Translations under genes and position numbers: made by a program
In this document: piece after piece, positions 1-32,693 of the stretch
Layout of the letters: each line of letters begins with the position of its first letter
Numbering within the stretch: the stretch's first letter is position 1
Notes under the pieces: model-generated
Seen by the model: only the letters and a program-made list of their open reading frames with translations
Told to the model about the DNA's origin: nothing
The model's database searches: none
Origin: a virus
Direction: 5' to 3' (one strand)
Virus record (IMG/VR): IMGVR_UViG_3300042373_000562
Coordinates: 1-32,693 of that record
DNA: 32,693 nt

Positions 1-127
1 AACAATCGGAGAAGGTTTACTTCCAGTATTTGAAACGGCGGTTTCGGCGGCCTTTTCATTCATTCAATCAATTAGTCAAATTCCGGCGTTTGTTCAGGAA
101 TACGGTCGAACATTGACTTTATTAGGC
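1..127. repeat. Terminal direct repeat, copy 1 (circular closure)
   Basis: These 127 bases are identical to the last 127 of the window. Both copies lie inside the tape measure gene, and joining them gives one uninterrupted reading frame. An overlap of exactly 127 nt equals a common maximum k-mer of de Bruijn assemblers, so this is best read as the overlap of a circular contig rather than a biological terminal repeat. The unique genome is then 32,566 bp. Confidence 0.95.
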
Positions 128-2515: not shown

Positions 2516-4270
2516 ATGAATTCAATGAAAATCGAATTGAACGGCGTTCTGATCACTGGACGCGTTGACGGAACGGACAATTTCGAAGTCACGCTTCGAC
2601 GCGAAGACAATTTCGGACGAACGGCGCGATCCTTTTCGACTGAACTTGTTTTCTTTGACGACGGATATTCGATTTTGAAGGCCGCCTTGATTGATCCGGT
2701 CAACGGTTTCGGATTGAAAGTTGACGTGAAGATTTTCGACGATTGTTGTTCTGAACCGGTTTTCGTTGGCGTTATTCGCGGCGACGCGATTGACTGGTGT
2801 GAACCTGAATGTTCAATTTCTTCACAAGTGATCGAAGAACAACTTTCATACAACTGTATTGAATCGAAGGTCCTGAATTCTGATCTGGACCGAAACGAAC
2901 GCGTCGATCTTCTTTATTGCATCGAAGGACGTCCGAAGTTCATTCATATCGTTCTTGGAATCCTTCTTTCGATTTTGGGATTCGTTGTTTCAACGGTTCT
3001 TTTGCCTTTTGTCGTTGTCATTTTGGTCATTGCGGCGCTTGTGTACTTTGTTTGTTCGGTCGTTTGCGTTTTGCCTTTGACCGATTGCACACAAGACGAT
3101 TGTGACGATTCACAATCGAATCCGTCCAACACGGTTGATTTGATTCAAGACTTGATCGACGAAACGGTCGGATTGTTCGACACTTGCAATCGAAAACATC
3201 CGTCTGGAATTTTGCGCGATTACATCAAAAGAACTTGTCAAGATTGCAATTTGCAATTTCAATCTTCAATTCTCAACGATCCTTCTTCAATTTATTACAA
3301 CACGGTTTTGTGGTCCGCACAAGTTGAAAAAGGCGTTTCGAATTCAATCACTTCGACGGAATTGATCGCCGAAAACGCGCCACTTGAAACACTTCAGACG
3401 TTGTTCGACAATATCTTGAAACCGACCTTCAACGCCGACTTTGCGATCGTCGGAAACACTCTTATTTTCGAACGGAAAGACTACTTCAACACTACGGTTC
3501 AATGGATCGACGCCGAACAATTATTGAATGACGGTCGAATCGCGGAAAACAAGATTTGTTTTTCTTGGATTGATCGCGAAAGATTCGCCTTCGGTCGTTT
3601 TGAATATAATCTGGACGCGCTTGACATTATCGGAAACGAAGCGAAACTTCGATTCAACGACATTGTCGAATTCAATATTCCATTTTCGCCGACACAATCC
3701 GGTCAATACAATGTTTCACTTCCATTGTCACCGGCGCGATTCAGGTCGGACGACGTTGACAACGAAGGAACGATCTTCGAAATTCTTGAATTCTTTCAAG
3801 GCGGTCTTTTGAACTTGATCTTCGGCGGACAATTCACGAATCAAAACAACAAATCAATGTTATTGAATAATCATTGCGGTTTCAACTACAAGTTGTTGAT
3901 TTGGGACGGCGACGATCTGGAATTCGGAACGGTGAAAAATAATTATTCCGACGCGTTCACGGGCGGACCGGTCTTCGTTGACGGCGCGAACGTGGATCCA
4001 GACGATCGTTTCAATTATCCGTTCTGGTTCAAGGAAAACAACTTGAACAATTTATATTCGCTTTTCCACTACATTGACGATCCGCGAAATCCGTCTTCAA
4101 CACAATTCAACTTCAACTTCACTTTTCAATTCAATTGTTCGGACTTGTCTTCTTTTGACTGGTCAAAAACTATTCGATTGCCGAAGAACGGAACAATTGT
4201 GAACGGACGTGTGAAAGAAGTCAAAATCAATTTCATCAATCGAACAATGTCCGTCAATGGGATTGTGTAA
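2516..4270 (+). CDS. Putative distal tail / tail hub protein with internal membrane-like segment
   Basis: The 584-aa protein begins directly after the tape measure stop, where siphophages encode distal tail or hub proteins. I do not recognise a specific family. It has several Cys pairs in the first 200 residues (CC near 77, C95/C99, C180/C184, C191/C196). A very hydrophobic stretch at about residues 142-188 could form two membrane-spanning helices, which is odd for an assembled tail protein. The rest is soluble and mixed. The role is inferred from position and size. The first ATG is used; a second in-frame ATG three codons later is also possible. Confidence 0.6.
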   Translation: MNSMKIELNGVLITGRVDGTDNFEVTLRREDNFGRTARSFSTELVFFDDGYSILKAALIDPVNGFGLKVDVKIFDDCCSEPVFVGVIRGDAIDWCEPECSISSQVIEEQLSYNCIESKVLNSDLDRNERVDLLYCIEGRPKFIHIVLGILLSILGFVVSTVLLPFVVVILVIAALVYFVCSVVCVLPLTDCTQDDCDDSQSNPSNTVDLIQDLIDETVGLFDTCNRKHPSGILRDYIKRTCQDCNLQFQSSILNDPSSIYYNTVLWSAQVEKGVSNSITSTELIAENAPLETLQTLFDNILKPTFNADFAIVGNTLIFERKDYFNTTVQWIDAEQLLNDGRIAENKICFSWIDRERFAFGRFEYNLDALDIIGNEAKLRFNDIVEFNIPFSPTQSGQYNVSLPLSPARFRSDDVDNEGTIFEILEFFQGGLLNLIFGGQFTNQNNKSMLLNNHCGFNYKLLIWDGDDLEFGTVKNNYSDAFTGGPVFVDGANVDPDDRFNYPFWFKENNLNNLYSLFHYIDDPRNPSSTQFNFNFTFQFNCSDLSSFDWSKTIRLPKNGTIVNGRVKEVKINFINRTMSVNGIV

Positions 4271-7050: not shown

Positions 7051-8139
7051 ATGGCCGACCTTTTTGATTCATACGTAAGTCCAACAAACGCCGCGATCGC
7101 GTTTTGTGATCAAACAAACTTTCTTTGTCGAACCGATCCGACGACGCGATTGTTTTGTGATACAATTGACACAATTTGCGGATCGACTGATTGTTCGACT
7201 TTGATTGTGAATAATGGACTTGGACTTTGCAATTGCGCGGACACTTGGAATTCGACTTGTTGCGGAAACGACACGCCGTTTTTGATTCCATATCAAAAAG
7301 GTGACACAATTGATTTTCAATTTCAACAAATTCTTTCCGTTCTTGGTGGCGTTTCGGACGGTTGGTCTTCAGACGGAACACTTGACACGCGCGATTCGGC
7401 CGCCTACTTCGAAATTCGATCTTGTTGTTCCGACACTTTGATTCCGGTTGACGAAACCGTTTTCAATGACGTTGTTCGAAACAATTATGTCGGACGTTTT
7501 CAGGTTGTCAATTATGACGGAACGGTCACGACAAGACCGATTCAAATGATTCGTTTCGATTTGGGCGCGATTTCACAACTTGCGATTGATCTTGGACTTG
7601 ATCCTTGTTTCTACTTCAAATTTTGCTTCACGAAGACTTCAGGACCGATTCAAAATCCGATCAATCCGGCAAACGTCGAATGTTTTTGTTCGGAATCTTT
7701 CACGCTTGAAAAATGTCAAGGCGTTGAAAAACGGTCGGTTGTCATATCTTCAATTTATTCAAAGGACGATTGCTTCGGTTATTATTACGGAAATTCATTC
7801 GTTCAAACTTTAGGCGGTTCGCCGTTTACTTATTCAAACGAAATTCGTGTTCCGGCGGCGTTTGAACAAACGAACTTCCAGATCACGAAAAACATTATCA
7901 ACGCTTCACGAAAAACCACTTCAACCGAAGTTTGTGAAACGTGGATCTTGCGTTCTTTCGCTTTACCTTCGCGATTCATGCGACTTGTTGTTGAAATTAT
8001 CGCCGGCGCCGACGTTTACGTTGACGGTCGCGAATACAATTCACAAGGCGAAGTTTCAAAGAACAACGAAACCGGTTCAAGGTGGTTCACTGACATCACT
8101 TTTGAATATTGCAATTGCTCAAAAAATCTAACTTGTTGA
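7051..8139 (+). CDS. Cys-rich putative tail-tip protein
   Basis: The 362-aa protein follows the Ig-domain protein after 14 nt of A-rich leader and ends one base before the portal start. I do not recognise the family. Its first 75 residues hold many cysteines (CGSTDC, CNC, CC), later pairs include CFCSE, and the protein ends in Cys (YCNCSKNLTC). It is probably a beta-rich virion protein. A minor tail or receptor-binding role is inferred from position only. Confidence 0.5.
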   Translation: MADLFDSYVSPTNAAIAFCDQTNFLCRTDPTTRLFCDTIDTICGSTDCSTLIVNNGLGLCNCADTWNSTCCGNDTPFLIPYQKGDTIDFQFQQILSVLGGVSDGWSSDGTLDTRDSAAYFEIRSCCSDTLIPVDETVFNDVVRNNYVGRFQVVNYDGTVTTRPIQMIRFDLGAISQLAIDLGLDPCFYFKFCFTKTSGPIQNPINPANVECFCSESFTLEKCQGVEKRSVVISSIYSKDDCFGYYYGNSFVQTLGGSPFTYSNEIRVPAAFEQTNFQITKNIINASRKTTSTEVCETWILRSFALPSRFMRLVVEIIAGADVYVDGREYNSQGEVSKNNETGSRWFTDITFEYCNCSKNLTC

Positions 8140-8140
8140 C

Positions 8141-9829
8141 ATGATCACAATTGAAAACATTAATTCAATCCTTGTCGATTCTAACTTCAGACCGAAGAAC
8201 TTCGAACATTGGGAAAAGGTTCGTGAAACAATGTTCGTTCACACGCGCGGAAAAAAACCGGAAACGATATTGACGGCGCGTCGTCCGAACGAAGATCCAG
8301 ACGTTCAAAAATACCGTCTTATGATTTACGAACCGATCACGAAAGGATCAATGAATCGCGCGATCGACAAACTTTTCAGGATCTTTCAAAACGCGAACTT
8401 TTCGATTTCGGTTTCGGACGAATTGAACACGTATTTGAACGACAAGAAGTTTGAAGGTCAATTCTTTTATTCCTTCATTCAAAAGTTCGTTGTTCGTCGA
8501 ATGATCGAAGATCCGAACGGTTTCTTGATCTGGATTCCGAAAGGTGAAGGTTTGACGAATCCGTCGATCAAAGTCGAAGTTTCGCCGCTTTTGGTCATGT
8601 CAAATTATATCAAATTCACGTCTGAAGAATTGTTGACTTGGCAATCGCCTGAAGAATTTGTTGAAATAAAGGCAAACGGAAAAACAGAAATGACCGGTCT
8701 TGTTTATTACACCTTGACAACTGATTCATTTTATCGTCATTATCAAGTCGGTTCAGGACAAAACAAAAGATTTGAAACCGAATTGATTTATCAACACGAC
8801 ATCGGATCAATTCCGGCGATTGTTTTAGGCGGCGACTTGACCGACGAAGATTTCTTCGATTCGTACTTTTCGGCGTTTGTTCCGTTCGCAAACGAAGCGA
8901 TTCGACAATATTCAGACTGGACGGCGGTAATGACAACAAGCGCTTTTCCGTATCGTGAAGAAATCGCGGAATCTTGTTCGGCGAAAGGTTGTCGCGACGG
9001 AATTGTGTATAATTCAGAAACGGACGAACACGACCGTTGTTCAGTTTGTCGCGGTTCTGGACGCGTGATTTCGCGTTCGCCTTTCGGCGTGTATTTTCGA
9101 GAAAAATCGAATCCGTCATTAGGTGAAAACATTGGGCCTTCTGAATCAATGTTGAAGTTCATTTCGCCACCGGTTGACATTATTCAATACAGTGGTGACG
9201 CGTGGCAAATACTACTTAAAAAGGCCGAAGAAGCGCTTCATTTGAACGTGATTGACGAAGCGCAATCTGGAACGGCGAAACAAATTGATCGCGAAGATTC
9301 TTTTTCGCAATTGACGAAGATTTCGAACAATTTATTCGACGAAATCATTTACAAATCGTTGATTTTTATCGAACAATATCGAAACGTCACGGATCCGACC
9401 GAACCGATAATCGTCAAACCGATTTCGTTTTCAATGAAGACGGAAAGCGATTTGATTGACGAAATCACAAAATTGTCAGACAAAAACGCGCCGGTTGCGT
9501 TTCTGGTCGAATCGACTAAAGACCTTGCGAAGAAAAGATTTTCAGGAAACAAGTCCGTGACGCGAATTGTTGAAGTTTTGGTTTCTTATGATCCGTTGTT
9601 CAACGTGTCGGTCAAAGACAAACAAATTCTTTTGTCGTCTGGAACAATCAAGAAAGAAGACTTGATCAAATCGCTTCACGCTTACAAAGTATTGACGAAT
9701 CTTGTCGCGGACAATGGAACCGAATTCCTTGAACAATCTTTGTCTGAACTTTTCGCGGCAATTGATACGGCAATGAAACCGATTGTTGATTCTTACGTGA
9801 ATTCAAATGTCATTCAAATTCCTTCCTAA
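8141..9829 (+). CDS. Portal protein with inserted zinc-finger-like motif
   Basis: The 562-aa product has the size and general character of a phage portal, the dodecameric ring at the packaging vertex through which DNA enters and leaves. It lies directly upstream of the MuF-type head protein, as portals usually do. An unusual insertion at about residues 279-308 carries four cysteines in a zinc-finger arrangement (C279-x4-C284 and C300-x2-C303), the second pair followed by RGSGRV, resembling DnaJ-type CxxCxGxG motifs. The C-terminal third is helical and charged, as in portals. The call rests on length, context and overall look rather than a single diagnostic motif. Confidence 0.75.
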   Translation: MITIENINSILVDSNFRPKNFEHWEKVRETMFVHTRGKKPETILTARRPNEDPDVQKYRLMIYEPITKGSMNRAIDKLFRIFQNANFSISVSDELNTYLNDKKFEGQFFYSFIQKFVVRRMIEDPNGFLIWIPKGEGLTNPSIKVEVSPLLVMSNYIKFTSEELLTWQSPEEFVEIKANGKTEMTGLVYYTLTTDSFYRHYQVGSGQNKRFETELIYQHDIGSIPAIVLGGDLTDEDFFDSYFSAFVPFANEAIRQYSDWTAVMTTSAFPYREEIAESCSAKGCRDGIVYNSETDEHDRCSVCRGSGRVISRSPFGVYFREKSNPSLGENIGPSESMLKFISPPVDIIQYSGDAWQILLKKAEEALHLNVIDEAQSGTAKQIDREDSFSQLTKISNNLFDEIIYKSLIFIEQYRNVTDPTEPIIVKPISFSMKTESDLIDEITKLSDKNAPVAFLVESTKDLAKKRFSGNKSVTRIVEVLVSYDPLFNVSVKDKQILLSSGTIKKEDLIKSLHAYKVLTNLVADNGTEFLEQSLSELFAAIDTAMKPIVDSYVNSNVIQIPS

Positions 9830-9832
9830 ATT

Positions 9833-11536
9833 ATGGCGGATTTTTCCGACAATATTGTCAAGATTATCGCGAAGAAGGACAAGAATATTGTTTCGGCGGA
9901 AAACCGATTGATTCAACAACTCAATCCGACAAATCAACGCGTCTTTGCGGCGGTCAAGAAGTTGATCGACACAATGAACACGAAAGACGGAAAGATTGAA
10001 TTCGACGATCAAAACATTGACATCGTTTCGACGATCGACAAGACGATCATTGACGCGATTCAATCGTCTGAAATGCCGTCGGCGATTGCTGAATACCTTC
10101 GCGACTTTGAAACGATCAAGAAGTTCAATTTCGACATTCAAAAAGACGTCAACGATCTTTCTGAACAAGAACTTGAAGACTTGATTTCACCGGTTCAAAA
10201 GACGGCCGTTCAAAGTACACTTGACGGATTGACTGGTTCCGGCGTGAACGCAAACTTTGTCGAACCGGTCCGTCAAGGAATCTTTCAAAACATTGCCGCC
10301 GGAACGTCAAAATCGGATCTTGAAAAATATTTGACGAATTACATTCTTGGAAATCCAGACGTTGACGGACTTTATTCGCGATATGTCAAACAAGTTTCGC
10401 GTGACGCGCTGAATCAATTTGACGGTCAAGTCAATTCAAGGATCGCCGAAGAATTTGATCTTGACGCCTTCAGATATGTCGGTTCATTGATCGAAGATTC
10501 AAGAAGTCAGTGTGTTCGTTGGGTTAAAAAAAGGATTCTTGAAAAGTCTGACCTTCCTTCGGAAATCGCTTGGGCAAACAACAACGGTTCAGGAATGATT
10601 TCAGGAACGAACGCGGAAAACTTCGCGGTCTTTCGCGGCGGTTACAATTGCCGACATTCGGCGATTCCTTTCAAATTGACTGAATCACAACGAAAAAGGT
10701 TAAAGATTGAACAAACGCAAGTTGAAAACAAGGTTGACGAACAAATAAGTGAAGTCTTAAACGAAGCAAATGAAATTCAACAACAAAATCAATCCGCAAA
10801 TAAAAAAAATCAATTAAACAGTGAATTTGTAGCAACAACACAATCGAAAGAAATTCAAAAAAACTTTTTCGATTTGGTAAACGGTCAAGACGGCGCGGCC
10901 GAAATCGCAAACGAAAAAAAAACCGTCGTCGGACTTCTTAACGATTCAGAAAGAACAAGTCCTTCTTCAGTTTCAAATTCTGAACTTTGGAAATCAAAAC
11001 AACAAATTGATCCGAAGCAAATCGCAAAAGTTCCAAAAGACGCGAACGGCGTTTGTTATACTGACAATTCAATGTTGTCTTGTGTAATTAAAGAAGGTCA
11101 AAAAATTGAAGGTCGAAACTATTCTGAAGAATGTTCAATGATTTCAAGAACGCGTTTTGACGGCGGAAAATTTTGGTCAATGTCTTCAGTTTCGCGCGTC
11201 ATTGATCAAAACATTGCGCCGACAATCACACACGAATTTTCGCACTTAATACAAAACAAAGTTGATCCAAAACAATTCGCTTTTTTCAAAGGTGATCCAG
11301 AAGGACACGTCAAAATGAAGTCACTAATGAAGCAATTGAAGATTAAACTTTCGGACGCGCCGACTTCATACGGACAAACAAATCATTCAGAATTTTGGGC
11401 CGAATCTTTAACTGCTTATGTTTACGCGCCTGAATGGTTGATTGAAAGTCATCCAAAAGTCAACTTGTTGTTGAACAAATTATTTGACGAATACAAAATC
11501 GACAAGTCAACAATCACACAATTTTTGAAAAAATGA
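9833..11536 (+). CDS. MuF-type minor head protein fused to a C-terminal zincin metallopeptidase domain
   Basis: The 567-aa protein has two parts. Residues 1 to about 285 look like a MuF/SPP1-gp7-type head morphogenesis protein, placed just after the portal, with Cys227 in DSRSQC and the typical C-terminal NCRH (C273, H275). Such proteins ride inside the capsid. After a Gln/Asn/Lys-rich linker (about 286-340), the C-terminal part carries a zincin signature: HEFSH (H467, E468, H471) and a downstream FWAE (E524) as probable third zinc ligand. This resembles the lethal-factor-like metallopeptidase domains found at the C-termini of MuF polymorphic toxins. From about base 10690 codon use shifts to more A-rich codons, suggesting a separately acquired cassette. 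The stop overlaps the next ATG by 4 nt. An effector role is inferred; a structural protease role is also possible. Confidence 0.8.
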   Translation: MADFSDNIVKIIAKKDKNIVSAENRLIQQLNPTNQRVFAAVKKLIDTMNTKDGKIEFDDQNIDIVSTIDKTIIDAIQSSEMPSAIAEYLRDFETIKKFNFDIQKDVNDLSEQELEDLISPVQKTAVQSTLDGLTGSGVNANFVEPVRQGIFQNIAAGTSKSDLEKYLTNYILGNPDVDGLYSRYVKQVSRDALNQFDGQVNSRIAEEFDLDAFRYVGSLIEDSRSQCVRWVKKRILEKSDLPSEIAWANNNGSGMISGTNAENFAVFRGGYNCRHSAIPFKLTESQRKRLKIEQTQVENKVDEQISEVLNEANEIQQQNQSANKKNQLNSEFVATTQSKEIQKNFFDLVNGQDGAAEIANEKKTVVGLLNDSERTSPSSVSNSELWKSKQQIDPKQIAKVPKDANGVCYTDNSMLSCVIKEGQKIEGRNYSEECSMISRTRFDGGKFWSMSSVSRVIDQNIAPTITHEFSHLIQNKVDPKQFAFFKGDPEGHVKMKSLMKQLKIKLSDAPTSYGQTNHSEFWAESLTAYVYAPEWLIESHPKVNLLLNKLFDEYKIDKSTITQFLKK

Positions 11537-11727
11537 CAATCGAACAAATGACAAAATTGTCAGAAGCGACTGAAGTCGCGTCGGCAAACAATGACATTGA
11601 AACCTTAAAAAAGATTTATTCAATTGTTAAAAACGAAACCGTTCAAAACGAAGAAAATCCAGAAGGTTCTGAATGGTTTTTTTCATTAATTACGTCAAAT
11701 CAATCCGTTTCAATTGGTTTTCAATAA
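11533..11727 (+). CDS. Small acidic protein coupled to the MuF-metallopeptidase; candidate immunity protein
   Basis: The 64-aa ORF starts inside the stop of the metallopeptidase gene (ATGA), so the two are probably translationally coupled. It is Glu/Asn-rich and begins with a helical, charged half. No family is recognised. It shares the more A-rich codon use of the preceding toxin-like domain, and a promoter-like TATATTTG follows it, so the pair looks like a self-contained cassette. A small cognate immunity protein or inhibitor is the obvious hypothesis; a head accessory protein is the alternative. Confidence 0.55.
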   Translation: MTIEQMTKLSEATEVASANNDIETLKKIYSIVKNETVQNEENPEGSEWFFSLITSNQSVSIGFQ

Positions 11728-11732
11728 TGAAT

Positions 11733-11740
11733 TATATTTG
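11733..11740 (+). promoter_or_regulatory. Bacteroidota-type promoter -7 element before the head operon
   Basis: TATATTTG matches the Bacteroidota -7 consensus TAnnTTTG. A partial -33 (TTG at 11714-11716) lies 16 nt upstream, shorter than the usual 19. It sits between the metallopeptidase/64-aa pair and the 81-aa gene, where it could drive scaffold and capsid genes independently. Confidence 0.55.
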
Positions 11741-11773: not shown

Positions 11774-12019
11774 ATGGAAAAGATCAAAGTTCAAAACGTG
11801 AAGACCGGAAAAGTTTCGGAAATCACGAAAATCGCTTTCGAACAATTGAAAAAAGGCGGACACGCGAAGAACTTCGACGTTCTTGAAAACGCGCCGAAAA
11901 AACAAATCAAGTTCAACGTGACAAATCAAGTCGAATCTGAAGGTCCTGAATCTGAAGTTCAAGTTTCTGAAGATCAAGTTTCAGAAAAACCAAAAACAAG
12001 AAAATCAAAATCTTTGTAA
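11774..12019 (+). CDS. Small charged head-region protein
   Basis: The 81-aa protein starts about 35 nt downstream of a promoter-like TATATTTG and ends 3 nt before the scaffold candidate. The N-terminal half (KVQNVKTGKV, EQLKKGG) looks like a small folded domain. The C-terminal third is a tail rich in Glu, Ser, Val and Lys (repeated VSE) that is probably disordered. I do not recognise a family. Its place suggests a head assembly accessory protein. Confidence 0.6.
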   Translation: MEKIKVQNVKTGKVSEITKIAFEQLKKGGHAKNFDVLENAPKKQIKFNVTNQVESEGPESEVQVSEDQVSEKPKTRKSKSL

Positions 12020-13016: not shown

Positions 13017-14036
13017 ATGGCTTTTACACAAGGATTGTGTCAAAAACTTCAGCAAGATTTGACAAATGTCGCCGGACAAAACGCGCCTTCACTGAAGCGC
13101 GACAAAGTGGGTTATTTGGACGCCTTAATGTCTAACGAAAACCGTTCAGGATTCGAAGCGATTCAACTTCCAACGGACGGAAAATCGCGAATGGTACAAA
13201 TCAACTACATTCAGCGCGGAACCGACGCGGACGTAAATTTGACTTGTACGAATTCTTGCGAAACTGAACAAGAAATCGCGCCGAAAGAAACGATTTTCGA
13301 AATTGAAAACTGTATCGAAACAAAAGGAATGAAATTTTCCGAAGATCAAATGCGAAAACTTTGTGAAGCGGATTCAGTTTATGTTTCGAACGTGATCATG
13401 TCGCAAATGAACGCGATCAATGTCGCGCTTGACAAACAACTTTTGACGGCACAATCAACGAATTTCGGAAAATTCGCGGACGGAACGACGAAGAAAGACA
13501 TTCAATTGTTCGAAGCAACAACGAACGCGCCGCGTTCAATTGCGGCCGCGCAAATTTCTTCATATTACGAACAAACCGGCGCGTCCGGCGCTCCGATTAT
13601 TATCGGTTCTGGAAATATGGACCTTTACGCGAAAACTCAAAAGATCGCTTGTTGTAATTCTTTCGGCGTGGATTTAGCCCGTTGGACTGATTATATGTAC
13701 TTCAACGACCGTTTCGTTGAAACGATTATCGGCGCCGACGAATTCATTGTGATCGCTCCGAACGCGGTTCAATTAGTAACGTGGAACAAATACGTCGGAC
13801 CTTACGCGAAGCGAAACGACGTTTTCGAACACGGAACAATCACGGATCCTTTCACCGGATTGACATACGACTTGAAAGTTCATTATGACGATTGCGCGGA
13901 CGAATGGTCAATCAAACTTCAATTGAACTGGGGAATCTTCTTCATTCCGGCGAACGCTTTCGCGGCGACTGATGCGAACTTCGGCGTGAATTACACGTTC
14001 AACTTCGGCGATTGTTCAACAATTGCGGAATGTTAA
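13017..14036 (+). CDS. Major capsid protein
   Basis: The 339-aa protein follows the scaffold candidate and precedes the tail tube candidate. The length suits an HK97-fold capsid subunit, and the gene has a long structured leader, as expected for the most abundant virion protein. The sequence is mixed alpha/beta with an extended N-terminal part and an APNAVQLVTWNKY segment. Cysteines recur (CTNSC, CC, DDC, FGDC) and the last residue is Cys. The chosen ATG has a strong A-rich leader; an in-frame ATG 72 nt upstream would add a Lys- and Cys-rich extension lying across the hairpins and is rejected. Confidence 0.85.
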   Translation: MAFTQGLCQKLQQDLTNVAGQNAPSLKRDKVGYLDALMSNENRSGFEAIQLPTDGKSRMVQINYIQRGTDADVNLTCTNSCETEQEIAPKETIFEIENCIETKGMKFSEDQMRKLCEADSVYVSNVIMSQMNAINVALDKQLLTAQSTNFGKFADGTTKKDIQLFEATTNAPRSIAAAQISSYYEQTGASGAPIIIGSGNMDLYAKTQKIACCNSFGVDLARWTDYMYFNDRFVETIIGADEFIVIAPNAVQLVTWNKYVGPYAKRNDVFEHGTITDPFTGLTYDLKVHYDDCADEWSIKLQLNWGIFFIPANAFAATDANFGVNYTFNFGDCSTIAEC

Positions 14037-20396: not shown

Positions 20397-21047
20397 ATGA
20401 ATTCAATTGTTTACAATGAAGATTGTCTTTCAGGAATGAAAAGATTTCCAGACAAATATTTCGATTTGGCCGTTGTTGATCCGCCTTATGGGATAAATAT
20501 TGCTGCAAGTGGAAGCATAGGCAGAGATAAGTTTACTCCTAAAAATTGGGATGAAAAAATACCTGACAATGAATACTTTATTGAGTTGCAGCGGGTATCT
20601 AAAAATCAAATTGTTTGGGGTGGAAATTACTTTCCTTATTTATGGAATAACGGATGTAAGGGCTTTATCTGTTGGAATAAATTAAACCACCACGATAACA
20701 GAGCAGATGTTGAGTTGGCTTGGACTTCATTTAATAAGTTGGCTAAATATTTCGAATATATGTGGGATGGAAATAGATATGGAACTAAAGGAAATATACA
20801 AGGAGTAGGAAAGCCAACTATAAGAATTCATCCAACACAAAAACCGGTTGCCCTTTACGACTGGATATTTCACAACTACGCGAAACCAGAAGACAAGATT
20901 CTTGATACTCATTTAGGAAGTGGATCTTCAAGAATTGCCGCCTTCAAAAACGGACTTGATTTCACCGGTTTTGAACTTGACAAAGAATATTTCGAAGCCG
21001 CCGAAAAGCGTTTCAAAGTATTCAAATCACAATTGACACTTTTTTAA
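20397..21047 (+). CDS. Orphan DNA adenine/cytosine-N4 methyltransferase, mosaic gene
   Basis: The 216-aa protein has the amino-methyltransferase motifs: catalytic DPPY (28-31) near the N-terminus, HPTQKP (145-150), and the SAM-binding segment DTHLGSGSSRIAA (170-182) followed by FELD. The order (motif IV before motif I) is that of beta-type enzymes, with the target recognition domain in between. No cognate nuclease is nearby, so it probably protects phage DNA from host restriction. Codon use is split: the ends look like the rest of the genome, whereas about bases 20488-20850 use ATA, GAG, AGG, GCT and TTA codons that are rare elsewhere, pointing to a swapped recognition domain. Confidence 0.9.
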   Translation: MNSIVYNEDCLSGMKRFPDKYFDLAVVDPPYGINIAASGSIGRDKFTPKNWDEKIPDNEYFIELQRVSKNQIVWGGNYFPYLWNNGCKGFICWNKLNHHDNRADVELAWTSFNKLAKYFEYMWDGNRYGTKGNIQGVGKPTIRIHPTQKPVALYDWIFHNYAKPEDKILDTHLGSGSSRIAAFKNGLDFTGFELDKEYFEAAEKRFKVFKSQLTLF

Positions 21048-23918: not shown

Positions 23919-23926
23919 TATCTTTG
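23919..23926 (+). promoter_or_regulatory. Promoter-like TATCTTTG before the recombination gene
   Basis: TATCTTTG matches TAnnTTTG, and the predicted transcript would start near the leader motif CGCAAATCAAAA (from 23933) just before the ATG at 23950. No clear -33 TTTG is seen, so it may be weaker or need an activator. Confidence 0.65.
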
Positions 23927-27227: not shown

Positions 27228-27481
27228 AAACCGAAATCAACTTCGGAAACGCCGTTCTTCTTCTTCTTCAACGTGAATTCATTCGTGAATGTAAAATTGA
27301 AAAGGCAATCGACGAAAACGGAAATCCAGTCAAAGACGAAAACGGAATTGAACTTGATCGCGCGGTTCATCCGCAAAACCTGAACTTTCCGAAATGGCTT
27401 TCTTTTCACAAACTGATTCAAGAAAAGAACGCAATCATTCGACCGGATCAATTTGACAAACCTTTCAAAATAATCAAATGA
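27224..27481 (+). CDS. Hypothetical small replication-region protein
   Basis: The 85-aa protein has an N-terminal helix, a DENGNPVKDENGIEL turn, and a C-terminal WLSFHKLIQEKNAIIRPDQF. It is coupled (4-nt overlaps) to its neighbours, including SSB. No family is recognised. Confidence 0.6.
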   Translation: MKTEINFGNAVLLLLQREFIRECKIEKAIDENGNPVKDENGIELDRAVHPQNLNFPKWLSFHKLIQEKNAIIRPDQFDKPFKIIK

Positions 27482-29419: not shown

Positions 29420-29623
29420 ATGACAAACCTTGAAGAACGTGTCGAATGGTACACGGAAACTTTGTTCGAAAAATTCGGAACGTCTGAAGAAGTTTTGAAA
29501 TACCTGAACAACGAAATCGAAAAAATGATTCTTGACGAATTTTATTTCGACGAACCGACTTTCACTTTTGATTTTCTGAATAAAGTTCGAAGACATATTT
29601 CAAACAAGGCGAAGTTTCAATGA
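29420..29623 (+). CDS. Hypothetical protein between terminase subunits
   Basis: The 67-aa acidic, helical protein starts one base after the small subunit stop and overlaps the large subunit start by 4 nt. No family is recognised. It could be an accessory to packaging. Confidence 0.6.
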   Translation: MTNLEERVEWYTETLFEKFGTSEEVLKYLNNEIEKMILDEFYFDEPTFTFDFLNKVRRHISNKAKFQ

Positions 29624-31803: not shown

Positions 31804-32693
31804 TGGCCGAAGACGTTAAAAATGTATTATTCAGACTTCAGGCGGACACCGGACAACTTCGGCGCGAACTTGAATCAATCAAGTCCGGACTTGGAAACAT
31901 TGGAACGGCGACAAAAGGCGCGGAAAGCCAACTTTCAGGACTTCGAAAAAGTTTGACCGGCGCGGCGGCGGCGTTCGGCGGAATTTCCGTCGCGGCGTCC
32001 GCGATTGACTTCGGCAAAGGCGCGATTCAAGCGGTTTCCGAATTTGAATCCGTTCAGATTTCACTTGAAACTTTTCTCGGTTCGGCCGACAAGGCGAAAG
32101 AAGTTTTCAAGGACCTTGAAAATTTCGCAATCAAAACGCCGTTCACGCCTGAAGAAGTTAATCAAGCCGGAAAGGCGCTTCTTGCGTTCGGCGAACCGGT
32201 CGAAGAACTGACAACAACACTTCAGCGCGTCGGCGACGTTTCCGCCGCCACTGGAAAGAACTTCAACGAACTCGCGGTCATTTACGGAAAGGCGCGAACA
32301 CAAGGGACACTTTTCGCCGAAGACATCAATCAATTGACTGAAGCCGGAATTCCGATCATTGGTTTATTCGCCGAACAATTCAAAACAACTGAAGAAAATG
32401 TCAAGAAATTAGGATCTGAAGGTCAAATCAAATTCGCAAACCTTGAAGAAGCGTTCAAGACTTTGACGTCTGAAGGCGGTCGATTCTTTGGACTTACTGA
32501 AAAACTTTCGCAATCAACGGCCGGACGTTTGTCGAATCTTGAAGGCGAATTCGGAAAACTTCAAAGAACAATCGGAGAAGGTTTACTTCCAGTATTTGAA
32601 ACGGCGGTTTCGGCGGCCTTTTCATTCATTCAATCAATTAGTCAAATTCCGGCGTTTGTTCAGGAATACGGTCGAACATTGACTTTATTAGGC
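31803..32693 (+). CDS. Tape measure protein, N-terminal part (continues at base 1)
   Basis: This is the start of the 1,092-aa tape measure gene; the frame is open at the window end and continues at bases 1-2515. The first 297 residues contain the conserved tape measure domain: QADTGQLRRELESI, EFESVQISLETFLGSADKA, TPFTPEEVNQAGKALLAFG, VGDVSAATGKNFNELA, YGKARTQGTLFAEDINQLTE and AGIPIIGLFAEQF. Such domains are widespread in siphophage tape measure proteins. The ATG overlaps the previous stop (TAATG). Confidence 0.95.
   Translation, partial: MAEDVKNVLFRLQADTGQLRRELESIKSGLGNIGTATKGAESQLSGLRKSLTGAAAAFGGISVAASAIDFGKGAIQAVSEFESVQISLETFLGSADKAKEVFKDLENFAIKTPFTPEEVNQAGKALLAFGEPVEELTTTLQRVGDVSAATGKNFNELAVIYGKARTQGTLFAEDINQLTEAGIPIIGLFAEQFKTTEENVKKLGSEGQIKFANLEEAFKTLTSEGGRFFGLTEKLSQSTAGRLSNLEGEFGKLQRTIGEGLLPVFETAVSAAFSFIQSISQIPAFVQEYGRTLTLLG
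32567..32693. repeat. Terminal direct repeat, copy 2 (circular closure)
   Basis: Identical to bases 1-127. Removing one copy gives the circular sequence. Confidence 0.95.

What the first reader, a model, noticed from the sequence alone, without database searches (positions are those of the whole stretch)
9833..11727. MuF head protein fused to a zincin metallopeptidase, with a coupled small gene (possible toxin-immunity cassette)
Seen: a portal-adjacent MuF-like N-terminus with NCRH, a low-complexity linker, then HEFSH (467-471) plus FWAE (E524), a zincin arrangement; an ATGA-overlapping 64-aa gene; a promoter-like element directly after the pair; and more A-rich codons from about 10690 to 11727 than in flanking head genes. 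Known: MuF proteins can carry C-terminal polymorphic toxin domains, including lethal-factor-like metallopeptidases, mostly described in prophages of other phyla. Inference: an effector packaged in the capsid and injected with DNA, acting on a host or rival target, with the small gene as immunity protein. Its presence in a phage without a visible integrase makes it more unusual.
Basis: partly seen in the sequence, partly recalled or inferred. Interest (0 to 1): 0.75.

Follow-up and report, generated by a model that had tools for sequence, protein, structure and literature searches.

The report
Swappable protease-toxin cassette on phage head protein
A virus of bacteria carries, on one of its head proteins, an interchangeable protease together with a matching small partner gene, and related viruses swap this pair for another one or lack it, which suggests a weapon loaded into the virus particle with its own safety catch.

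Summary
The 567-aa MuF-like head protein (9833-11536) ends in a zincin domain whose model (pLDDT 86) aligns with the lethal factor / Pro-Pro endopeptidase fold (Z 11.7). A 64-aa acidic gene overlaps its stop. In related contigs, domain and small gene travel as one exchangeable cassette. All 29 distinct type-A carriers have a type-A small gene; all 18 carriers of another zincin (type B) have an unrelated type-B small gene; none of 52 MuF-only genes has either. Closely related backbones carry zincin A, a Zeta-toxin domain or nothing, with sharp DNA borders. This fits a MuF polymorphic effector with a cognate inhibitor, not a capsid maturation protease. The phage looks complete (127-b terminal repeat, about 32.57 kb) and gave no integrase, resolvase, rve or HTH_3 match, whereas published MuF toxins were described as exclusive to temperate phages. 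Cultured pelagiphages (HTVC026P, Kolga) carry a distant version of the same arrangement; three relatives of HTVC026P lack it. Packaging, injection, proteolysis, target and neutralisation are inferred, not shown. Verdict: supported; a new variant of the MuF-toxin kind.

The parts
8141..9829 (+). portal-like protein, 562 aa, directly upstream
   Evidence: phrog_145 portal E 0.0031; position before MuF kept in the portal-bearing relatives read
9833..10702 (+). MuF-like N-terminal domain, residues 1-290, ending after NCRH
   Evidence: PF06152 Phage_min_cap2 matched by 16 of 16 aligned N-parts, best 9.2e-6; window 0.00019, 20.9 bits, under the 26.3 cut-off
10703..10822 (+). A-rich linker, residues 291-330; exchange border lies just before it
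   Evidence: GC 0.296 for 10688-10822; DNA identity falls at about +840 of the gene in 8 of 8 pairs with unlike cassettes
10823..11533 (+). type-A zincin domain, residues 331-567
   Evidence: AlphaFold2 model pLDDT 86.2, pTM 0.86; lethal factor Z 11.7, PPEP-1 Z 10.8
11231..11245 (+). HEFSH, residues 467-471 (zinc histidines and catalytic Glu468)
   Evidence: H, E and H invariant in 23 of 23
11369..11404 (+). Y513, E520 and E524: Tyr, likely third zinc ligand, likely second-shell Glu
   Evidence: E520 and E524 23 of 23, Y513 21 of 23; roles by recalled spacing
11533..11727 (+). 64-aa acidic small gene, proposed cognate inhibitor (immunity) gene
   Evidence: ATGA overlap; type A7 family follows 29 of 29 type-A carriers; pI 4.3
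11733..11740 (+). TATATTTG promoter-like element after the cassette, before the next head gene
   Evidence: TAnnTTTG at this place in 33 of 42 relatives' sequences
11774..12019 (+). 81-aa conserved gene after the cassette (far flank of the exchange block)
   Evidence: present after the cassette, or directly after MuF when the cassette is missing, e.g. L057
12023..12844 (+). 273-aa gene in scaffold position
   Evidence: position only; no significant family match
13017..14036 (+). 339-aa gene in major-capsid position
   Evidence: position only; no family match, no match in the phages collection
1..127 (+). left copy of exact 127-b terminal repeat
   Evidence: identity checked again
32567..32693 (+). 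right copy of exact 127-b terminal repeat
   Evidence: identity checked again

Best explanation
The gene encodes a MuF-type polymorphic effector. The conserved N-terminal part ties it to the portal and head; the C-terminal domain is a lethal factor / Pro-Pro-endopeptidase-like zinc protease (type A) that is packaged with the head and ejected with the DNA into the next cell, where it cuts a cytoplasmic target. The overlapping 64-aa acidic gene makes a cognate inhibitor, translated with the effector, that keeps the protease off in the producing cell. Domain and inhibitor form one cassette that phages exchange by recombination in the conserved flanks (MuF N-part on one side, the 81-aa gene on the other) for another zincin with its own small gene, for a Zeta-toxin domain, or for nothing. 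Shown here: domain architecture, predicted fold, intact motif, cassette exchange, co-exchange of the small gene, loss in relatives, a self-closing contig without the four integration or repressor families tested. Inferred: packaging, ejection, proteolysis, target, inhibition, and that the phage does not form lysogens.
For: Fold: model pLDDT 86.2; lethal factor catalytic domain Z 11.7, rmsd 3.7, 173 aligned, PPEP-1 Z 10.8; profile against PDB sequences: lethal factor 1.5e-4, PPEP-1 1.5e-3. Catalytic residues invariant 23 of 23. Coupling: 29 of 29 type-A and 18 of 18 type-B carriers have the matching small gene (L138 under a longer start), none has the other kind, 0 of 52 MuF-only genes has either; outside the sequences used to build the small-gene profiles 18 of 18 and 12 of 12. 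Small-gene distances follow the C-terminal domain rather than the N-part: partial r 0.72 (n=20) and 0.66 (n=15), 0 of 5000 permutations as high in each. Exchange: L012 and L010 N-part 94%, domain 32%, small gene 38%; L012 and window N-part 68%, domain 79%, small gene 84%; at least 9 A/B changes on the N-part tree; sharp DNA borders in 8 of 8 unlike pairs. A known toxin family in the same slot: L056 Zeta_toxin 3.5e-13, 49.9 bits, cut-off 22.3. Same domain and small gene behind another MuF family, L050 and L051 for A and L141 and L143 for B. Distant parallel in cultured phages: HTVC026P gp30/gp31 and Kolga gp59/gp60 share domain (36%) and small gene (39% over 41 aa) behind unrelated N-parts.
Against: No experiment. 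Foldseek's best E is 0.0029, none under 0.001. The window's own domain gives no ATLF hit at E up to 1, only sub-threshold M90. No close match to the domain in the 50,697 phage records or by two pattern-limited scans of genome contigs. Co-exchange does not tell an inhibitor from a chaperone or loading factor. The L056 Zeta gene has no same-strand small gene; the nearest candidate is an antisense 75-aa ORF without a family. Acidity is weak evidence: 7 of 22 other small genes of the window have pI under 5, and Kolga gp60 has pI 6.6. Killing the host early would not pay for a phage that must replicate in it, so the target must be tolerable or useful to cut.
Confidence: 0.72

Rival explanations
1. 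The zincin is a capsid maturation or self-processing protease of the phage, and the small gene its regulator.
For: It sits among head genes; zincins are described as processing peptidases within phage polyvalent proteins (PMC5512222, passages).
Against: Relatives with the same head genes lack it (L057, L062, L067) or carry a Zeta-toxin domain (L056); three HTVC026P relatives lack the extension. A needed maturation protease should not be dispensable or swapped.
Confidence: 0.06
2. The effector is injected chiefly to disarm the host (a defence or regulatory protein) for the phage's own benefit rather than to kill rivals; domain types change with the defences met.
For: No integrase, resolvase, rve or HTH_3 match in four self-closing genomes, so a benefit to lysogens is unlikely; domain loss in some relatives fits a conditional need.
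Against: A Zeta-toxin domain in the same slot looks like a toxin rather than a counter-defence protein (function of Zeta toxins recalled); no target known.
Confidence: 0.4
3. The small gene is not an inhibitor but a domain-specific chaperone, loading factor or activator.
For: Chaperones would also be exchanged with their clients; overlap of genes fits co-translational binding (25 of 29 type-A pairs overlap by 4 b).
Against: Small genes of about 60-80 aa after MuF toxins are described as immunity genes, 89.4% of 191 against 25.5% of 952 short MuF genes (PMC5576092, section 8); two MuF toxins, Bxa and Apk2, have physical blockers (PMC11699363, passages).
Confidence: 0.18
4. Ordinary temperate-phage MuF toxin: the phage does form lysogens by a route not recognised here, and the toxin serves lysogens as in the published model.
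For: Most published MuF toxins are in prophages (PMC5576092, abstract and passages). Pelagiphage isolates showed dynamics suggestive of lysogeny or chronic infection despite lack of such genes (PMC8163748, passages). Most window genes have no family.
Against: No PF00589, PF00239, PF01381 or PF00665 match in the window and three other self-closing genomes; two scans of genome contigs found no copy of the domain.
Confidence: 0.2

Closest known systems
MuF polymorphic toxins (Jamet et al. 2017, PMC5576092; passages and section 8 seen)
   Same: MuF-like N-part beside the portal, variable C-terminal toxin domain, small ORF after toxin-bearing but seldom after short MuF genes; 20% of 191 had a metallopeptidase domain.
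   Different: Described as exclusive to temperate phages and mostly Firmicutes (no virulent phage with a known toxin domain among 979 phages with predicted lifestyle; the temperate link for toxin genes alone was p = 0.055). Here: self-closing genomes without integrase, a Bacteroidota-type promoter motif, and dense exchange of whole cassettes between close backbones.
Bxa and Apk2 MuF toxins of prophages (PMC11699363; passages seen)
   Same: MuF fusion with adjacent immunity genes, including physical blockers; Bacteroidales hosts for Bxa.
   Different: Enzymes are an ADP-ribosyltransferase and a (p)ppApp synthetase; prophage-borne; more than one immunity gene.
Lethal-factor-like metallopeptidase toxin domains (Tox-ALF, Zhang et al. 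2012, PMC3482391; passages seen) and Pro-Pro endopeptidases (PDB 5a0p and others)
   Same: Same predicted zincin fold with HExxH and a later Glu helix.
   Different: Zhang's table lists Tox-ALF with PVC and T2SS delivery and an Imm-SuFu immunity domain, not MuF; the small genes here match no family searched.
Zeta toxin (Pfam PF06414)
   Same: Present as the C-terminal domain of the L056 MuF protein in the same slot.
   Different: Not in the window; no epsilon-type antitoxin recognised, only an antisense 75-aa ORF without a family.
Pelagiphages HTVC026P (MN698240) and Kolga EXVC016S (MT375529)
   Same: MuF-like or head morphogenesis protein ending in an HExxH...EFFAE or EWFAE domain, followed by an overlapping 56-60 aa gene; no integrase match.
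   Different: Different hosts (SAR11); domain only distantly alike (profile scores 29.9 and 23.7 bits); small genes not alike to the window's.

Membership tests
MuF polymorphic toxins | N-terminal MuF-superfamily domain | tested here: inconclusive
   16 of 16 N-parts match PF06152 at E up to 0.1, best 9.2e-6, window 20.9 bits under the 26.3 cut-off; L066 passes it (27.8 bits). No PF04233 hit in the window; cassette carriers L141, L147 and L148 do pass PF04233.
MuF polymorphic toxins | encoded in the head/packaging module beside the portal | tested here: met
   portal-like gene ends 3 b before it; terminase at 29620
MuF polymorphic toxins | C-terminal toxin domain that varies between relatives with a conserved N-part | tested here: met
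   zincin A, zincin B, Zeta or nothing on related N-parts
MuF polymorphic toxins | small ORF downstream tied to presence of the toxin domain | tested here: met
   29 of 29 and 18 of 18 carriers; 0 of 52 MuF-only genes
MuF polymorphic toxins | restriction to temperate phages (reported association, not part of the architecture that defines the family) | tested here: not met
   no PF00589 in the window or 42 related records, four of which close on themselves with the window counted; no PF00239, PF01381, PF00665 in those four. Lysogeny by an unknown route is not excluded.
MuF polymorphic toxins | toxicity neutralised by the downstream product | not testable with these tools
   needs co-expression
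Lethal factor / PPEP-like zincins (Pfam ATLF PF07737) | HExxH and downstream zinc-binding Glu | tested here: met
   H467, E468, H471, E520 invariant 23 of 23
Lethal factor / PPEP-like zincins (Pfam ATLF PF07737) | shared catalytic-domain fold | tested here: met
   Z 11.7 and 10.8; but Foldseek best E 0.0029
Lethal factor / PPEP-like zincins (Pfam ATLF PF07737) | sequence match to the Pfam model | tested here: inconclusive
   8 of 23 relatives match ATLF, best 8.4e-6; the window itself does not at E up to 1 and gives M90 9.6e-4 under its cut-off
Lethal factor / PPEP-like zincins (Pfam ATLF PF07737) | substrate preference | not testable with these tools
   no assay
Capsid maturation protease | kept in relatives that have the same head genes | tested here: not met
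   missing or replaced in L056, L057, L062, L067

The most novel reading that the evidence does not exclude
Phages that do not make lysogens load polymorphic toxin-immunity cassettes into their heads and keep exchanging them, so the cassette acts between phages: a cell already infected by one phage makes the small inhibitor, and is spared only by an incoming particle of the same cassette type, while other types are penalised or wreck the resident infection. The cassette type would then be a compatibility tag, with immunity protecting a virus factory rather than a lysogen.
Probability: 0.2. Interest if true: 0.85.

Novelty: new variant of a known kind. Interest (0 to 1): 0.62.

Why it matters
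MuF toxins were reported as a property of temperate phages, with models that rest on lysogens. A self-closing set of genomes without integrase that carries co-exchanging effector and partner cassettes, plus a distant parallel in cultured pelagiphages with relatives that lack it, makes it testable whether a packaged toxin serves the infecting phage itself, and what an immunity gene does for a phage that need not protect a lysogen. It also adds lethal-factor/PPEP-like proteases with a new small partner family to the capsid-delivered effectors.

Tried and rejected
Searches that led nowhere: the window's domain and the type-B domain gave no match in the phages collection (E limit 1); the capsid-position gene gave none; two pattern-limited scans of genome contigs with the domain profile matched 44 and 8 stretches and no relative. 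NCBIfam gave nothing useful. The small proteins match no family above chance in Pfam, PHROGs or NCBIfam. The two small-gene families are not detectably related (hhalign 0.3%); the two zincin types meet only over 43 columns round the Glu helix (30%, E 5.5e-4). The type-B model (pLDDT 86.7) gives lethal factor Z 8.7, in the range where unrelated folds occur, and Foldseek's best E is 1.5; its zincin call rests on the invariant HExxH (17 of 17) and on PF18818, 5 of 6 members, best 4.7e-6.

Rows dropped before counts: type-A matches at E above 1e-10 (L106, L111; their small genes do not match A7) and 3'-open rows (L049, L055, L060); type-B matches at E above 1e-40 (L147, L148, L149; their 80-83 aa overlapping genes do not match A5) and 3'-open L152; L004 (349 aa, stops 23 b before its contig end, class unclear) is in no class. 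Distinct means distinct ORF letters: several of the 29 are near copies or fragments of one population (L026-L028; L042, L045, L046, L048; L037, L038), so I give no p-value for the contingency. L138's small gene is called only with a longer upstream start.

Considered and rejected: maturation protease; chance motif; reading the whole window as enriched for TAnnTTTG (it is not); small-gene acidity as strong evidence (7 of 22 other small genes are as acidic). Not done: a fold of the small protein or of the complex (both fold jobs went to the two zincin domains).
Full report
What is there. The window is one IMG/VR virus record of 32,693 b. ORF 9833-11536 (567 aa) follows a portal-like gene (8141-9829, phrog_145, E 0.0031) by 3 b and shares ATGA with ORF 11533-11727 (64 aa). 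Its first 290 residues resemble phage minor capsid protein 2 (PF06152; 16 of 16 aligned N-parts match, best 9.2e-6; the window's 20.9 bits are under the cut-off of 26.3). PF04233 was not hit by the window, but is passed by L141, L147 and L148, which carry related C-terminal domains. Residues 291-330 are an A-rich linker, 331-567 the zincin domain.

The domain. In 23 homologues H467, E468, H471, E520 and E524 are invariant and Y513 is kept in 21. The AlphaFold2 model has pLDDT 86.2 and pTM 0.86. Foldseek ranks lethal factor and Pro-Pro endopeptidases first, with a best E of only 0.0029; VIA-align gives Z 11.7 (rmsd 3.7, 173 aligned) to lethal factor residues 572-775, 10.8 to PPEP-1, 8.3 to Certhrax. 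A profile search of PDB sequences gives lethal factor 1.5e-4 and PPEP-1 1.5e-3. Pfam ATLF is matched by 8 of 23 members, best 8.4e-6, and M90 by 9 of 23; the window itself shows only M90 under its cut-off. By the Tyr-to-Glu spacing recalled for this fold, E520 rather than E524 would be the third zinc ligand.

A cassette, not a fixed domain. Relatives were fetched with the MuF protein, portal, N-part, domain A and domain B. Besides type A there is a second, hardly related zincin, type B (hhalign 30% over 43 columns; PF18818 in 5 of 6 members, best 4.7e-6). Of distinct carriers whose 3' end is in the contig, 29 of 29 type-A rows (E under 1e-10) are followed by the A7 small-gene family and 18 of 18 type-B rows (E under 1e-40) by the A5 family, L138 only under a longer start; none has the other kind; 0 of 52 MuF-only genes with at least 300 b downstream has either within 300 b. 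Outside the sequences used to build the small-gene profiles the score is 18 of 18 and 12 of 12. The two small-gene families are not detectably related. Several rows are near copies, so these are counts of distinct ORFs, not of independent events.

Independent signs of exchange. Small-gene distances follow the domain more than the N-part: type A r 0.83 against 0.65, partial r given the N-part 0.72 (n=20); type B 0.93 against 0.87, partial 0.66 (n=15); 0 of 5000 permutations reached either partial value. L012 and L010 share 94% of the N-part but 32% of the domain and 38% of the small gene; L012 and the window share 68% of the N-part but 79% and 84%. The N-part tree of 53 rows (20 A, 16 B, 15 none, 1 Zeta, 1 unclear) needs at least 9 changes between A and B, and starred branches force 8 for A and 7 for B (quick tree without bootstrap, several long branches). 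L039 and L040 (A), L056 (Zeta, PF06414 3.5e-13) and L057 (none) lie in one supported group. In 8 of 8 pairs with unlike cassettes DNA identity falls near +840 of the MuF gene and rises again at the 81-aa gene: for L039 and L056, 82-97% before, 36-63% within, 92-97% after until the contig ends come near. Two controls behave: L040 and L039, same cassette, stay at 94-100% through it (they differ in the next gene instead), and the window and L012, unlike backbones, are more alike inside the cassette (71-87%) than before it (38-76%). Domain A with its small gene also stands behind another MuF family with another portal family in L050 and L051, and domain B in L141 and L143.

Genes around it. The small genes are acidic (mean pI 4.3; net negative in 28 of 29 and 17 of 17) and the domains basic, but 7 of 22 other small genes of the window have pI under 5, so this is weak. 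25 of 29 type-A and 9 of 17 type-B pairs overlap by ATGA, so the small protein is probably made whenever the effector is. A TAnnTTTG promoter-like motif lies just after the cassette in 33 of 42 relatives' sequences, which would give the downstream head genes their own start and leave the cassette as the tail of the upstream operon. With a Bacteroides phage as the lowest E-value among the 20 terminase matches listed (3e-25) this suggests, but does not show, a Bacteroidota host.

Lifestyle. The window ends carry an exact 127-b repeat that falls inside one tape-measure gene, so it closes to about 32,566 b; of ten related records tested three also close, G006, G029 and G034. No PF00589 match in the window, in 28 and in 14 related records, most of them fragments; no PF00239 in 9 and 2; no PF01381 or PF00665 in the four self-closing genomes. 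Controls rang in 6 to 14 of 14 named genomes. Unknown recombinases, plasmid-like persistence and chronic infection are not excluded.

A distant parallel in cultured phages. Tblastn of the whole protein finds four pelagiphages. HTVC026P gp30 (608 aa) continues past the MuF part into HEFGH (511) and EFFAE (575) with an overlapping 60-aa acidic gp31; HTVC112P, HTVC111P and HTVC202P, the other three hits, have MuF genes of about 330-340 aa with scaffold genes next and no such pair. [quoted passage not shown] Kolga gp60 is not acidic (pI 6.6). No PF00589 in these records.

Mechanism. A domain that is swapped or lost while the head genes stay is not a maturation protease. A partner gene that always goes with one enzyme type and is missing without it fits an inhibitor or a dedicated chaperone; published MuF toxins argue for the inhibitor (small ORF after 89.4% of 191 toxin-bearing against 25.5% of 952 short MuF genes, PMC5576092, section 8; physical blockers of Bxa and Apk2, PMC11699363, passages). 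I therefore read the window as a capsid-delivered protease with a co-made safety catch. For a phage without lysogeny the catch would protect the producing cell, and the injected enzyme should serve the infection: disarming the host, or acting against other phages.

Known and new. MuF fusions to metallopeptidases are known: 20% of 191 toxins had a metallopeptidase domain (PMC5576092, passages). The table of Zhang et al. (PMC3482391, passages) lists the lethal-factor-like type with PVC and T2SS delivery only. I found no paper on MuF toxins in virulent phages or on this cassette in ten searches of the held library; subscription papers are mostly not held. New are the self-closing genomes without integrase, the whole-cassette exchange between close backbones, and the small partner families.

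Noticed in passing
L056:1076-3012: MuF protein of a backbone close to L039, L040 and L057 ends in a Zeta-toxin domain (PF06414, 3.5e-13); the gap behind it holds an antisense 75-aa ORF (2785-3012, minus strand) with no family, possibly its antitoxin.
   Followed up: partly
L106:5737-7680; L107:5737-7698; L111:3-1514 and next gene: Distant MuF proteins with another HEFAH domain and a 66-77 aa cysteine-containing small gene (start CST or CGTC-like pattern): a possible third cassette type.
   Followed up: no
L147:3-1625; L148:374-2071; L149:1-1671: PF04233-type MuF proteins (L147, L148 tested) with a distant type-B domain, followed by a different 80-83 aa gene that overlaps by more bases.
   Followed up: partly
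MN698240.1 11402-13400 (L179:4347-6345): Cultured pelagiphage HTVC026P gp30/gp31, annotated as hypothetical proteins, look like a MuF-zincin and partner pair; HTVC112P, HTVC111P and HTVC202P lack it.
   Followed up: yes
L016:8949-10655: The type-B domain holds an internal tandem duplication of 19 residues between HExxH and the Glu helix (seen as an insert in the alignment).
   Followed up: no
window 7051-8139: Cysteine-rich 362-aa protein just before the portal with no significant family match.
   Followed up: no
L040 and L039, about +2010 to +2280 from the MuF start: Two near-identical cassettes are followed by a diverged stretch in the next gene (43-75% DNA identity): a second exchange spot.
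   Followed up: no
window 20397-21047: N6/N4 DNA methyltransferase (PF01555, 6.1e-16); RecT at 23926 and SSB at 27478 are also present.
   Followed up: no
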